Source: Mycobacterium pseudokansasii
Lineage (GTDB): Bacteria > Actinomycetota > Actinomycetes > Mycobacteriales > Mycobacteriaceae
NCBI RefSeq assembly: GCF_900566075.1
Contig: NZ_UPHU01000001.1
Span: 868,001-932,000 of the forward strand
DNA: 64,000 bases
Direction: 5' to 3'
Positions within the stretch are counted from its first letter, which is position 1; each line of letters starts with the position of its first letter. Below, piece by piece: positions 39,353 to 46,199 of the stretch. Made by a program: the position numbers and the translations under genes. The notes under the pieces were generated by a model that was not told where the DNA came from, did no database searches, and saw only the letters and a list, made by a program, of their open reading frames with translations.

Positions 39353-40575
39353 TCACCTGCTCGACGTCTCCGCGACGGGATCCAGCTCCCGCAGCGAGGA
39401 CAGTCGCAGTGCCACCACGCCGATCGCGATCATCGGGATGGCCAGCACCAGGAACGTCCGCCGCATTCCGGTGGTTTCGAAGAGCGGGCCGGCCAGCAGG
39501 TAGCCCACCGGGCCGGCCCCATAAGACAGCGAGGTCATGACGCCGACGACGCGGCCCCGCAGCCGCGGGGGCGACTTGATCTGGGTCACGTAGTTGTAGA
39601 TCGGCGCGACCGGCCCGTAGACCAATCCGATGAGCCCGCACAGCAGCAAGAGCACCGCCAGCGGCGGCGACAACGAAAACAGTGCGGTGCACCCACCGAG
39701 CGTCAGCGTGGCGACGAGCAGCATGGTGCGCCGGCTCAGCCACCGGACCAGCAACGGGTAGGCCGTGGCGCCGGTCAACCCGCCGATACTCAGTGCCATC
39801 AGCACCCAACCCAGGTGCGCCGGTTCGTTGCGGTCGGTGAAGTACTTGGGAAACAGCACGCTTTGCATCGGCAGGTACAGCCCGGTCATCGCCAGGTCGA
39901 TCAGCGCCAGCGTGCGCAGCACGGTGACGTTCCACACGAACCGCAGCCCCCGGACCATCCCGGACCACGCCTGTGCCGGTCGCTTGCTGACCGGTCCGGC
40001 GCCCGCCAGCCGTAACACGCTGATCGCCGAGATGGACAGGCCGAACGCGCTGGCGGTGACCACATCGTGTTGACCCCGCCTATGGTCCCGATCAGCATGC
40101 CGCCGACTCCGGGCCCGATGATGTAGGCGACATGGTAGCTGGCCTGGTAGGCACGATCGAGCGTCCACCCCGCCTGCGCGGCGGCCTCGGGCAGCATCGA
40201 TATCCGCGCGCTAATCGCTACCGGCTTGAACACCGCGCCCAATGCGGCCAGCACCGCGAGGACGCCGACGGTGACGCTCTGGGGACCCAGGCCGACGGCC
40301 AGTAACGGCACCGCGGCCGTGCTGCTACCCGAAATCGCATCCGAGATAATCGAAATACCCTGCCGTCCAAAGTAATCCACCGCAGCGCCGGCGATCAGCG
40401 TGGAGAGCAGCAGCGACAACGACGCGGCGCCGGCGACGATCGACGCATCGACCACGCTGCCGGTGCGCTGCAGCACCAGCCGCGGAAACGCGACCATCGA
40501 GATACCGTTACCCGCCGCGGCGGTCAGGGCCGCCAACAGGATGAGATAGACCGGGCGGCGCGACAATGCGGACAA
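39353..40575 (-). pseudogene. MFS transporter, frameshifted
   Basis: N-terminal half (LSRRPVYLILLAALTAAAGN to GPGVGGMLIGTIGGVNTMW) and C-terminal half (VTASAFGLSISAISVLRL to RELDPVAETSSR) are in two frames meeting at about 40066. One extra G in the TGG there would join them. Together they make about 410 residues with 12 helices, of the Bacteroides-macrolide/EntS-like MFS exporter type. The start is uncertain (TTG near 40575). It would be the exporter of the adjacent carbamoyltransferase/radical SAM gene cluster. Confidence 0.75.
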
Positions 40576-40586
40576 GGGCCGGGTAC

Positions 40587-41973
40587 TCAGTGATTCGCAT
40601 TCGGCGGCCGGAGCACGATCGCCCTCCGACGCCAGAGGTCGAGCAATTCGGCGACAAGGTCTGCCCATTGGCGCTCGTCGCCACCCCATCGGATACGGAG
40701 TTCGCCGACGGTCGGGCTGCCGTCGCAGCGCACCAGCAGTTCGAACGCAGCCGGTGAGACACACACGCTGACGTCGTCGAAAAAGCGGGACGCGGTGCTT
40801 TCGATGGCGTGCCGAAACCCGCCATCCGAAACGACAAGGCGCGCCGCACCACCTTTTTGTAGGGCGCGAGGCCGAGGGTGAGCGAGGGAAGGGTGGTGTC
40901 CAACGAGCCGACGTGCGCGACGAGGCGCTCACCGAGGACCATGCGGTCCAGGCCCATGCCGAGGAACGCGTCGACGGCGTCGTCAAGTGAGTCGACGAGT
41001 GGCTCGCCCGCACGGTTGAACGACGTGTTGATGAGGACGGGCACGCCAGTGCGTTCGCCCAACGCCTCAAGCAGCTCCCACAGCCGGGGATTGTCCGCGC
41101 GGGCAACGGTCTGGCCTGCGAGGGCCGCGCGCCGGTCGGGCCGCACCTCGACGACGACGTTCATGTGCCCCAGATGTGTGTGCGTGGCGGGCAGTTGAGC
41201 CCGCCCGATCAGTCCCGCACCGGCCAGCCGGTCGAATTGTGCTGCGGGCGTGGCGAATCGGTAGTCGCCGTCGGGCAGAAGTTCGAACATCGAGGCAAAG
41301 AGATCCCCATACAGCCCGGCGTCGCCGTCGGCGGCGAGCGCCATCACCTTGTACTCGTCGAACACGCCGAATCCGACGACACCGATCATCCGCTGGTAGA
41401 ACAGCCCGAGCGACTGTTCCAGCGTAAAAGTGCGCCGGATCGCCGGGCCGTCGCGGCGCCCGTCGGCCACCAACCCGGAGGCATACCCGCCCGTGCCGTC
41501 CTCCCCGATCCCGTCGAGCACGAGAATCAGCGACTCGTCAAAAGGCGCACACCGCAACGCACTCCACGCGTGCGCCTCGTGGTGTGCGCAGAAGCGCAAC
41601 TTGGGGCGACCTCCCACCCGAGGTGGCGACGGAACAGGCCCGCGATCCAGGACACGCCGTCGCGCTCGGTGGCGCGGGTATCTTCCAGTGCCATCCGTCG
41701 CGCGTATCCATCGGCGGATGTCCGCGAGAGGCTGACGGCTACCGCGTCGACATCCTCGCTGGTGAGTCCGCCGTGAGCGAGGCAGAATGCGGCGGCGCGG
41801 GCCGGGAAGAAGTTCGAGTGTTTCAGGCGCGAGAGCCGCTCCTCCTCCACCGCGGCGACCACCCGCCCGTCGACCATGAGCGCCGCCGCGGCGTCGTGGC
41901 CGCTGAAGCCGGGCAGGATGTTGTCTTCGTGCTCGGCGCTGATGCCGCCGAATGCGATGCCGAGCGTGCGCAT
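40587..41973 (-). pseudogene. NodU/CmcH-type O-carbamoyltransferase, two frameshifts
   Basis: Starts MRTLGIAFGGISAEH, then FSGHDAAAALMVDGRVVAAVEEERLSR (shown by its ends: GHDAAA, EEERLSR). It shifts frame at about 41605 in a CCCC run, continues KLRFCAHHEAHAWSAL with LDGIGEDGTGG, EYKVMALAADGD and PVLINTSFNRAGEPLVDS, and shifts again at about 40856 in an AAAAA run to give an extra C-terminal domain ending PPNANH. NodU-family enzymes carbamoylate hydroxyls with carbamoyl phosphate. Both lesions are single bases in homopolymers. Confidence 0.8.
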
Positions 41974-44384: not shown

Positions 44385-44841
44385 TCGACCGGTTGCCCCC
44401 CGCGGATGTCTGTTGCATCTCACCGATGAGAGCCTCGGCGGCGGCACGCGCCCGCTGTTCCCAGGCGGCGAGCACCTTCCGGGTGAAGTGCGGCCGCAGG
44501 AAGCGGCGCAGGAAGGTGTGGCGTGGCGGATCGTCGCACAGCAGCGGCGGCGCCAGCCCTGCCGTGAACTGATCCATGCCACCCGCGGGGTTGATCGCCG
44601 AGGAGAACACTGCGGGTGCGCGAAGCGCCGCCGCAACGTCGTCGTATGTGGATACGACCCAGCATCGCCGCGACTGGCTGTAGCAGACGGGTGCTTCGGC
44701 ACGTAGTTGGGCGAAGAACGAGTATGGGTCCTCGATATAGTCCGGCGCTTCGGGGTCGATATCGAGCTGCATGCGTTCGATTGTCTTGCGCGAGCGCGCT
44801 TTTGTCGGTAGTTCGGGGTTTTGTGGCCGAAACCGGATCAC
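44385..44841 (-). pseudogene. cytochrome P450, N-terminal fragment
   Basis: GTG overlaps the pncB2 stop. From MQLDIDPEAPDYIEDPYSFF it follows P450 helices A-C (CWVVSTYDDVAAALRAP, LLCDDPPRHTFLRRFLRPHF with the heme-propionate HxxxR-like block) to IGEMQQTSAGG. A run of six G then breaks the frame; one base more restores QPVDFVASFAR, and the match ends there, joined to the radical SAM sequence. I-helix, ExxR and heme Cys are absent. Confidence 0.75.
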
Positions 44842-46199
44842 CTCGGCGGCCCCGGCATTGCCGCGCCGGAGTGCCGTATCCGCTCGAGTTCACCCACCAC
44901 CGCGTCGCTGACGACCACCGGGTATGTGTAGCCGGTGTCCTCGAGTGAACGAAGCTCCGGCGGCAGCGCGTCGGTCTGCTGCCGCGCGCGGTTGCGTGCG
45001 GCAGCCAAGTCGGACACGTGCTGCGCGAGGCGCCGGCCGTTGCTCATGACGGGCGCCAACAACGGCTCACCGGGCAGTTTTTCGTCGTGCCGGCCGAGCA
45101 TGTCCCCGTGGAACCTCCCGTGCTCGAGGGTGCGGAACACCTGCTTGCGACCCGGATAGATCACCTTGCCGCTGGACAACTTGGTGCGGCCGATGCCGCC
45201 GTATTCCACCAGCTTGTAGGCCATGTCGAGGGCGGGCGCGTCGGCCGCGACGACCAGCTTGGTGCCCACGCCGAAGCCGTCGATCGGGCAGGCTGCAGCC
45301 ACCAGCGCGGCGATGCGGTGCTCGTCGAGGCCCGACGAGGCGAAGATCTCGACCTGGTGCAGACCCGCGGCGTCCAGCCGTGCGCGCACTGCCGTCGACA
45401 GTGCGCCGAGGTCTCCCGAATCCAGCCGGACCGCCCGCACGTCGAAGCGATCGCCGAGTCGTCGCGCCAGCTCGATGACCCGGTCGACGCCGCGCAGCGT
45501 GTCGTAGGTGTCGACGAGCAGCGTGGTGCCGGGGTAGAGGCGGGCGAACGTGTCGAAGGCGTCGCTCTCGTTGTCGAAGGCCTGCACATAGCTGTGGGCC
45601 ATCGTGCCGAACGCGGGAATCCCGTAGTGGCGGGCCGCCAGAAGATTCGACGTGCCCGCGGCACCGGCAAGGTAGCTGGTGCGCGCCACCTTCAGGGCCG
45701 CATCGGCGCCGTGGGCGCGCCGGGCACCGAAGTCCACCACCGGCCGTCCGCGTGCGGCGCCGACCACCCGCGCGGCCTTGCTCGCGAGCACACTTTGCAG
45801 GTGAATCTGGTTCAGCACAAAGGTTTCGACGAGCTGCGCTTCGATGATCGGCGCGATCACCGCGACAATCGGCTCGTTGGGAAAGACCACGGTTCCTTCC
45901 GGCACCGCCCAGACGTCTCCGGTGAAGCACACGCCGGCAAGCCACCGCAGGAACTCGTCGGAAAACTGGCCAAGACCACGAAGGTAGTCCAGGTCCTGAT
46001 CGTCGAATCGAAACGATTCCAGGTAGTCGGTCACGTCGGCCAGGCCGGCGGCCATCACGTACGACCGGCCCGGCGGGAGCTTGCGGAAAAACGTTTCGAA
46101 AACCGCTGTGCCCGACATTCTTTGGGTCCAGTAGGCCTGCGCCATCGCCACTTCGTACAGATCGGTGAACAACGCCCCGATATCCTGACGGATGGCCAT
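44838..46199 (-). CDS. pncB2: nicotinate phosphoribosyltransferase
   Basis: 453 residues. NAPRTase fold: LFTDLYEVAMAQAYW, FETFFRKLPPGRSYVM, GARRAHGADAALKVARTSYLAGAAG (shown by ends; key ARRAHG, SYLAG), then YGIPAFGTMAHSYVQAF and VDTYDTLRGV, RLDSGDLG. Matches M. tuberculosis PncB2 (Rv0573c), a DosR-regulon enzyme salvaging nicotinate into NAD. Its stop overlaps the P450 start, so here it heads a larger operon. Confidence 0.93.
   Translation of the reverse strand: MAIRQDIGALFTDLYEVAMAQAYWTQRMSGTAVFETFFRKLPPGRSYVMAAGLADVTDYLESFRFDDQDLDYLRGLGQFSDEFLRWLAGVCFTGDVWAVPEGTVVFPNEPIVAVIAPIIEAQLVETFVLNQIHLQSVLASKAARVVGAARGRPVVDFGARRAHGADAALKVARTSYLAGAAGTSNLLAARHYGIPAFGTMAHSYVQAFDNESDAFDTFARLYPGTTLLVDTYDTLRGVDRVIELARRLGDRFDVRAVRLDSGDLGALSTAVRARLDAAGLHQVEIFASSGLDEHRIAALVAAACPIDGFGVGTKLVVAADAPALDMAYKLVEYGGIGRTKLSSGKVIYPGRKQVFRTLEHGRFHGDMLGRHDEKLPGEPLLAPVMSNGRRLAQHVSDLAAARNRARQQTDALPPELRSLEDTGYTYPVVVSDAVVGELERIRHSGAAMPGPPR

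What the first reader, a model, noticed from the sequence alone, without database searches (positions are those of the whole stretch)
39353..46199. pncB2-led operon with P450, two radical SAM proteins, LRR protein, carbamoyltransferase and MFS exporter
All genes are on the minus strand with overlapping or near-overlapping ends (pncB2/P450 share GTGA; radical SAM genes overlap). A nicotinate phosphoribosyltransferase followed by two oxidative/radical enzymes, a carbamoylating enzyme, a repeat scaffold and an exporter looks like a small natural-product or nucleotide-modification pathway beside dormancy genes. Several members are broken here, so intact relatives would show the real system. I know of no described pathway with this set.
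Basis: partly seen in the sequence, partly recalled or inferred. Interest (0 to 1): 0.8.

Follow-up and report, generated by a model that had tools for sequence, protein, structure and literature searches.

The report
Decaying foreign enzyme operon beside pncB2
A set of enzyme genes that a mycobacterium probably picked up from elsewhere landed next to an ordinary vitamin-salvage gene and has since been broken by deletions and frame changes, so what lies here is a relic, while intact relatives of some of its genes seem to sit together in other, undescribed microbes.

Summary
Only pncB2 (44838-46199) and the leucine-rich-repeat ORF (42012-42944) are open. P450, both radical SAM genes, carbamoyltransferase and MFS exporter are truncated, fused or out of frame, and the overlapping radical SAM genes are a deletion product. 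pncB2 does not lead an operon: relative G015 has the same neighbourhood and an open pncB2, with a 160-base spacer where the window has about 5.5 kb. Sister G131 has the block at the same site, cut down differently. The block is best read as a young relic of a foreign operon. Broken radical SAM 1 recurs in a cluster of 5 sequences on 7 contigs, which speaks against an assembly slip. Intact relatives seem linked elsewhere: radical SAM 1 with radical SAM 2 twice and with the LRR protein once, inferred from equal contig lengths. Folds and families (BlsE/SkfB-like, MgmA/MiaB/AprD4-like, NovN/TobZ-like, P450, Tap-like) suggest radical and oxidative tailoring plus O-carbamoylation of a small molecule, then export. 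The product is unknown. Two paper searches found no description of this set.

The parts
44838..46199 (-). pncB2, nicotinate phosphoribosyltransferase, open; old resident and not part of the block
   Evidence: NF009131 696 bits; ortholog at 84% nt in G015 without the block and in G131
39317..44871 (-). block absent from G015 (limits = ends of G015 homology; the upper end lies just inside the pncB2 3' end)
   Evidence: blastn window against L074: homology stops at 39316 and resumes at 44872; G015 spacer 160 bases
44323..44841 (-). cytochrome P450, N-terminal piece only (about residues 24-143 of the ORF); the rest, with the heme-binding part, is missing
   Evidence: Pfam p450 match to profile 24-134 of 462; 170 distinct solved sequences match, in the 60 shown always within ORF residues 20-150
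43810..44396 (-). radical SAM 1, middle part only (residues 66-259 of 354 in intact relative P0157), with one frame change; the part holding the CX3CX2C motif and the C-terminal cysteine motif are missing
   Evidence: blastx; relatives P0157-P0275; Tistrella homolog L013:9516-10781
43009..43827 (-). radical SAM 2 (residues 23-293 of 293 in intact relative P0002), N-terminus missing and one short out-of-frame stretch inside; CX4CX2C kept
   Evidence: 88% to P0002; alignment A1; PF04055 over cut-off
42012..42944 (-). leucine-rich-repeat protein, open frame of 310 aa
   Evidence: LRR_8/LRR_14; 56% to P0121 over 159 aa, including an unusual stretch between repeats
41527..41973 (-). carbamoyltransferase, N-terminal piece
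   Evidence: Carbam_trans_N, profile 10-64 of 346
40802..41608 (-). carbamoyltransferase, second frame (residues 124-392 of ORF 40508-41977): middle and C-terminal pieces, with roughly 200 residues missing between them
   Evidence: Carbam_trans_N 124-238 of 346 and Carbam_trans_C 104-168 of 170; NovN-type 9s2t, GdmN, TobZ; spacing in a plasmid homolog
40577..40852 (-). open 92-aa stretch between carbamoyltransferase and MFS, no family found
   Evidence: no hit in NCBIfam or Pfam at E<=0.01
39353..40563 (-). Tap-like MFS exporter, broken into two frames
   Evidence: NF052575 pieces 2-173 and 173-401 of 401, neither reaching the cut-off alone

Best explanation
The block at 39317-44871 is the decaying relic of a horizontally acquired operon (P450, radical SAM 1, radical SAM 2, LRR protein, carbamoyltransferase, MFS exporter) that entered downstream of an old pncB2 gene in the common ancestor of this species and sister G131. 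Shown: presence seen only in G000 and G131 among the congeners searched (MFS part apart), an empty counterpart in G015, broken reading frames, and different losses in the two carriers. Inferred from equal contig lengths: linkage of intact relatives elsewhere. Inferred from families and folds: when intact it modified a small molecule. A SPASM/twitch-type radical SAM enzyme and a P450 oxidised or rearranged it, the second radical SAM enzyme made a further radical change, the carbamoyltransferase put a carbamoyl group on a hydroxyl, the LRR protein held the substrate or the enzymes together, and the MFS protein exported the product. Here the pathway cannot work, since the P450 lacks its heme part and radical SAM 1 its cluster motif. 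Decay looks young: in the kept frames of radical SAM 2 no excess of substitutions is seen.
For: Frame switches inside the block but not inside pncB2 or ald. Radical SAM 1 and 2 pieces mapped on intact relatives. The broken radical SAM 1 product recurs as cluster P0156, 5 sequences on 7 contigs, the window's own perhaps among them; its representative differs from the window ORF at one residue beside its first letters, and its longest contig is 65 kb, so at least one other assembly has the same truncation. G015 empty site. G131 same site, lacking window 41756-44818 and 39723-40985 but keeping carbamoyltransferase pieces and the MFS end, partly fused in one ORF. Of the rows listed for 297 genomes of the genus, own included, only G000 and G131 match outside the MFS part. 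Radical SAM 2: 1 of 397 order genomes and 1 of 394 class genomes, the own genome each time. Equal longest-contig lengths 3633 (P0002/P0157), 12858 (P0003/P0158), 4304 (P0161/P0121). Close radical SAM 2 group is one clade, 100/99. Relative rates 3:6, 3:4, 2:3, 2:4 for radical SAM 2; 95 of 95 invariant columns kept. Fold neighbours.
Against: P450, carbamoyltransferase and MFS were not seen linked to the radical SAM pair outside these two mycobacteria; their membership rests on this block alone. The contig links are equal lengths, not contigs read. The MFS copy is close to the chromosomal Tap-like gene of other mycobacteria (79%, G100), so it may have joined separately. The LRR ORF is open and could still be used, though chance alone leaves it open with probability about 0.19-0.36 under a crude Poisson sketch with an assumed 5-8 lesions. 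No mark of a mobile element was found: no tRNA gene in the window, repeats unremarkable by my reading, no phage match, only short plasmid matches. G+C content does not set the block apart. One empty sister cannot by itself tell gain from loss. For radical SAM 1 the window has somewhat more changes than P0157 with two outgroups (8:4, 9:2) and equal numbers with a third (5:5), and its radical SAM 2 row has a longer end branch than P0002 in the tree (0.19 against 0.027), so the age of decay is uncertain. No product or precursor is identified.
Confidence: 0.76

Rival explanations
1. One reading: a pncB2-led operon for a nucleotide or natural-product pathway, running with the dormancy genes.
For: Same strand, close spacing, ORF overlap at the pncB2 stop; dormancy-type genes around (PMC5309233, passages); loose DosR-core-like sites with 2 mismatches at 29934 and 37356, though such sites are no more common than chance.
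Against: pncB2 with the same neighbours but without the block in G015; block genes broken; no full DosR box in the window; no NAPRT listed in the two annotated radical SAM 1 loci.
Confidence: 0.05
2. The frame changes are sequencing or assembly errors and the operon works.
For: Some differences from G131 are single-base sized, as long-read errors can be.
Against: The truncated radical SAM 1 product recurs in a cluster of 5 sequences on 7 contigs; large deletions are involved; pncB2, ald and other neighbours are open; G131 is broken at the same site in its own way.
Confidence: 0.03
3. The block was ancestral in a wider mycobacterial group and was lost cleanly in G015 and others, rather than gained by G000 and G131.
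For: A single sister without the block (G015) cannot by itself tell gain from loss; the MFS part resembles a mycobacterial gene.
Against: No other carrier among listed rows for 297 genomes of the genus; radical SAM 2 not found in 396 other order genomes at E<=1e-30; nearest radical SAM 2 relatives sit in unnamed contigs and one planctomycete MAG.
Confidence: 0.12
4. The LRR protein is still used on its own, and the rest is debris around it.
For: Open 310-aa frame with strong codon bias.
Against: Missing from the site in sister G131; no test of selection was possible; openness is not improbable by chance.
Confidence: 0.12

Closest known systems
Radical SAM proteins beside PaaA-like diiron proteins and thioesterase/MaoC-type genes (Burkholderia stagnalis plasmid, Alteromonas mediterranea pAMDE1; Tistrella mobilis pTM3 with Rieske, PaaA-like and a weakly AurF-like gene)
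   Same: Radical SAM 1 is of this family (intact relative P0157 57% to Tistrella over 338 aa)
   Different: There the partners are diiron proteins, thioesterases, Rieske or carrier-protein genes; here P450, a second radical SAM, LRR and carbamoyltransferase
BlsE (7vob), SkfB (6efn), anSME (4k36): SPASM/twitch radical SAM enzymes (this grouping recalled)
   Different: Only 14-18% identity; substrate unknown
MgmA (9ccb), MiaB (7mjy), AprD4 (6fd2)
   Same: Among the nearest folds of intact radical SAM 2 relative P0003
   Different: Radical SAM 2 is about 291 aa, the solved chains 417-454 aa; 14-18% identity
NovN-type decarbamoylnovobiocin carbamoyltransferase (9s2t), GdmN, TobZ
   Same: Carbam_trans_N and _C domains; E 9.8e-33 to 9s2t
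   Different: Window gene is split by a frame change and lacks about 200 residues
Tap multidrug efflux MFS (NF052575; Rv1258c, the gene name recalled)
   Same: Two pieces cover nearly all of the Tap model
   Different: Broken; a second copy beside the genome's own Tap-like gene (69% at DNA level)

Membership tests
pncB2-led operon | pncB2 and the block occur together in relatives | tested here: not met
   G015 has pncB2 and neighbours without the block; G131 has pncB2 with a remnant; two relatives examined
pncB2-led operon | one transcript from pncB2 into the block | not testable with these tools
   no expression data; the sigma-70 consensus scan gave 0 sites, shuffles mean 0.7
Biosynthetic gene cluster | several tailoring enzymes plus exporter co-located as a unit | tested here: met
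   (as remnants)
Biosynthetic gene cluster | a core enzyme or precursor that makes the scaffold | tested here: inconclusive
   none among the nine block and pncB2 ORFs scanned; small precursor ORFs not tested; could be lost or elsewhere
Radical SAM superfamily (radical SAM 1) | CX3CX2C cluster motif in the window gene | tested here: not met
   window piece starts at residue 66 of P0157, after the motif at 34-41
Radical SAM superfamily (radical SAM 1) | motif in the intact relatives | tested here: met
   C40, C44, C47 invariant in the 27 sequences aligned, of 120 listed
Radical SAM superfamily (radical SAM 2) | PF04055 and cysteine motif | tested here: met
   55.7 bits against cut-off 29.5; CX4CX2C kept
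NodU/TobZ-type O-carbamoyltransferase | Carbam_trans_N and Carbam_trans_C complete in one open frame | tested here: not met
   both domains present in part, frame broken and internal deletion
Tap MFS efflux (NF052575) | score over the 625-bit cut-off | tested here: not met
   pieces score 230.9 and 335.8
DosR regulon | DosR box upstream | tested here: inconclusive
   full 20-base consensus (recalled): 0 matches with up to 3 mismatches; looser core: 31 matches against a chance mean of 40, four places with 2 mismatches (28128, 29934, 37224, 37356), none directly before pncB2

The most novel reading that the evidence does not exclude
Intact relatives define an undescribed pathway in which two radical SAM enzymes, a P450 and an O-carbamoyltransferase act on one substrate presented by a leucine-rich-repeat protein, that is, an LRR protein used as a biosynthetic scaffold or carrier.
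Probability: 0.2. Interest if true: 0.65.

Novelty: new variant of a known kind. Interest (0 to 1): 0.33.

Why it matters
It corrects an attractive but unsupported link between NAD salvage, dormancy and a new pathway, and it documents the apparent gain and rapid loss of a foreign enzyme set in one mycobacterial lineage. The relic points to intact genes in uncultured microbes where an unusual radical SAM pair, perhaps with an LRR partner, could be studied.

Tried and rejected
Viral contigs: no relative of radical SAM 2. Phage records: block not found. Plasmids: 7 records with matches to at most 21% of the block, in the MFS, radical SAM 1 and carbamoyltransferase parts. Rfam: nothing in the window at gathering score nor in 39000-47000 at E<=0.1. 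No tRNA gene in the window. Named-genome scan with the radical SAM ORF: 4 loci, three of them only the wide radical SAM family (33-34%) and the fourth (Tistrella) a radical SAM 1 homolog read off frame. Phylum search with the radical SAM 2 alignment: 37 of 386 genomes at E<=1e-25, own included; the nine other loci returned (L063-L071) are only 33-41% alike and gave no radical SAM 1 or LRR hit in their short flanks, so I read them as the wider family. G131 and G015 gave no radical SAM 1 or 2 elsewhere (the queries do ring in G000). P450 next to radical SAM 1 in G337 is a distant P450, 38% over 39 residues, so not counted as the same pairing. The MFS rows in many congeners are read as a chromosomal Tap locus, judged from a shared neighbour gene in four of them (G100, G226, G303, G005), not as block members.

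Paper searches: mycobacterium + radical SAM + carbamoyltransferase + cytochrome P450 + gene cluster, 0 papers; radical SAM + leucine-rich repeat + carbamoyltransferase + biosynthetic gene cluster, 1 listed, on P. syringae cold response, unread beyond the listing; Tistrella mobilis + radical SAM, 4 listed, unread beyond the listing; radical SAM + phenylacetic acid + diiron + thioesterase + Burkholderia, 0; pncB2 terms, 10 listed, of which PMC11203133 seen as one passage; Rv0573c terms, 2 listed, of which PMC5309233 seen as passages.
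Full report
What is in the sequence. The window lies at G000:C1:868001-932000 of a 6.43-Mb genome in two contigs. No call names the organism. A PE-domain protein beside the locus fits Mycobacterium (that PE proteins are mycobacterial is recalled). On the minus strand, pncB2 (44838-46199) is open and scores 696 bits against a cut-off of 330 for nicotinate phosphoribosyltransferase. Downstream come a P450 piece, two radical SAM genes, an LRR ORF, carbamoyltransferase pieces and two MFS pieces.

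The block is broken. Three-frame reading and codon-position bias show the best frame switching several times between 44800 and 39350, more than gene borders explain, but staying in one frame within pncB2 and within ald. The P450 ORF matches only profile positions 24-134 of 462. Radical SAM 1 covers residues 66-222 and, in another frame, 222-259 of its 354-residue relative P0157. Its cluster-binding cysteines (34-41 in P0157) and its last 95 residues are missing. Radical SAM 2 covers residues 23-293 of P0002 at 88%, with a short out-of-frame stretch inside. The carbamoyltransferase has its domains in two frames. In its second frame about 200 residues are missing: residues 126-378 of the ORF spread over 1377 bases in a Bradyrhizobium plasmid homolog. 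The MFS gene is in two frames. The LRR ORF is open; with an assumed 5 to 8 lesions in the rest of the block, chance would leave it open with probability about 0.19-0.36.

Unlikely to be an artefact. The truncated radical SAM 1 product recurs as cluster P0156, with 5 member sequences on 7 contigs, the window's own perhaps among them. Its representative differs from the window at one inner residue, and its longest contig, 65 kb, is not the window's. Neighbouring genes are open.

Origin. G015, 79-85% alike at DNA level where it aligns, has the RtcB, archease, Rv0571c-like, DUF2267, pncB2 and Mut7-C genes in matching order, but homology jumps from window 39316 to 44872, with 160 bases between its pncB2 stop and the next homology. 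The window's CBS, ald and CapA genes also have no match in that 19-kb stretch. G131, 91-95% alike in the flanks, has the block site. It has no match to window 41756-44818 and 39723-40985 but keeps carbamoyltransferase pieces and the MFS end. One ORF there fuses the two and holds Carbam_trans_C positions 35-145, of which 35-103 are missing in the window. In another, shared carbamoyltransferase piece the two genomes differ by two single-base gaps, so small lesions are partly not shared. Among the rows listed for 297 genomes of the genus, own included, only G000 and G131 match outside the MFS part. 278 of 297 had some match; weaker rows were not listed, and only two places a genome were scored. 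Radical SAM 2 was found in 1 of 100 relatives, 1 of 397 order genomes and 1 of 394 class genomes, the own genome each time; these draws overlap. The block G+C content, 0.674, is close to the flanks at 0.659 and 0.673, so composition gives no hint of origin. The MFS part is 79% alike to a Tap-like gene of G100 but 69% to the own genome's copy, so it may have come from another mycobacterium.

Relatives. Radical SAM 2 has six near relatives (56-88%) among the scored candidates from a database of 5.8 billion proteins; one is named, from a planctomycete MAG. In a tree of 60 of the 120 listed rows these and the window copy are one clade, 100/99. Radical SAM 1 is wider: 138 proteins at E<=1e-10, 120 listed, with streptomycetes, burkholderias and Microbispora among the few named ones. 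Contig lengths link P0002 with P0157 (3633), P0003 with P0158 (12858) and P0161 with the LRR protein P0121 (4304). This is an inference from equal longest-contig lengths with a source in common; the contigs themselves could not be opened. The other near radical SAM 2 relatives (P0004-P0007) had no such partner in the listed rows. In other radical SAM 1 loci the partners are PaaA-like diiron, Rieske, AurF-like, thioesterase and ketosynthase genes. None of the proteins annotated or scanned there was an LRR protein or carbamoyltransferase, but not every gene was scanned. So radical SAM 1 is modular, and its pairing with radical SAM 2 and LRR belongs to a small subgroup.

Age of decay. In the kept frames of radical SAM 2 (247 sites) the window copy has no more changes than P0002 with any of four outgroups (3:6, 3:4, 2:3, 2:4), and 95 of 95 invariant columns are kept. 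For radical SAM 1 (147 sites) the ratios are 8:4, 9:2 and 5:5. The longer end branch of the window row in the tree (0.19 against 0.027) probably reflects its fused and out-of-frame stretches, which that tree did not leave out. Decay thus looks recent, but the radical SAM 1 figures leave room for doubt.

The pncB2 link. In M. tuberculosis, Rv0573c (pncB2) belongs to DosR block Rv0569-Rv0574c and Rv2630/Rv2631 to block Rv2623-Rv2631 (PMC5309233, passages). The window unites such genes. No full DosR box was found, though a few looser cores are present at no more than chance frequency. pncB2 is best read as the neighbour of an insertion.

Verdict. Interest is moderate: the system worth study lies in the intact relatives. 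On rechecking I lowered the main confidence slightly (0.78 to 0.76) and raised the loss-in-others rival (0.10 to 0.12), because gain against loss rests on one empty sister.

Noticed in passing
window 30314-49959: Genes like those of two separate M. tuberculosis DosR blocks (RtcB and archease; Rv0571c-like, pncB2 and CapA) stand together here; G131 aligns across most of this stretch, and G015 across parts of it, but the window's CBS, ald and CapA genes have no match in the G015 stretch.
   Followed up: partly
window 42012-42944: The LRR protein has an irregular stretch between repeats (about residues 150-195) that is also present in its nearest relative P0121, a possible binding site.
   Followed up: no
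window 27375-29446 and 56184-57917: ORFs that look, by eye, like IS21-type istA/istB and another transposase (one search list); not tested against families.
   Followed up: no
L058/L059 (G981:C2:690741-700447): Two radical SAM 1 homologs about 9 kb apart, 60% and 50% to P0158, among Rieske, AurF-like, ketosynthase and thioesterase genes: a probable lipid or polyketide locus.
   Followed up: partly
L062 (G337:C9), 8517-10917: A radical SAM 1 homolog directly followed by a P450 gene in another genus of the same family; the P450 is only distantly like the window's.
   Followed up: partly
Mycobacterium riyadhense plasmid NZ_OY970457.1, 214215-215404: An MFS gene on a 472-kb plasmid, 66% alike at DNA level to the block's MFS.
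   Followed up: no
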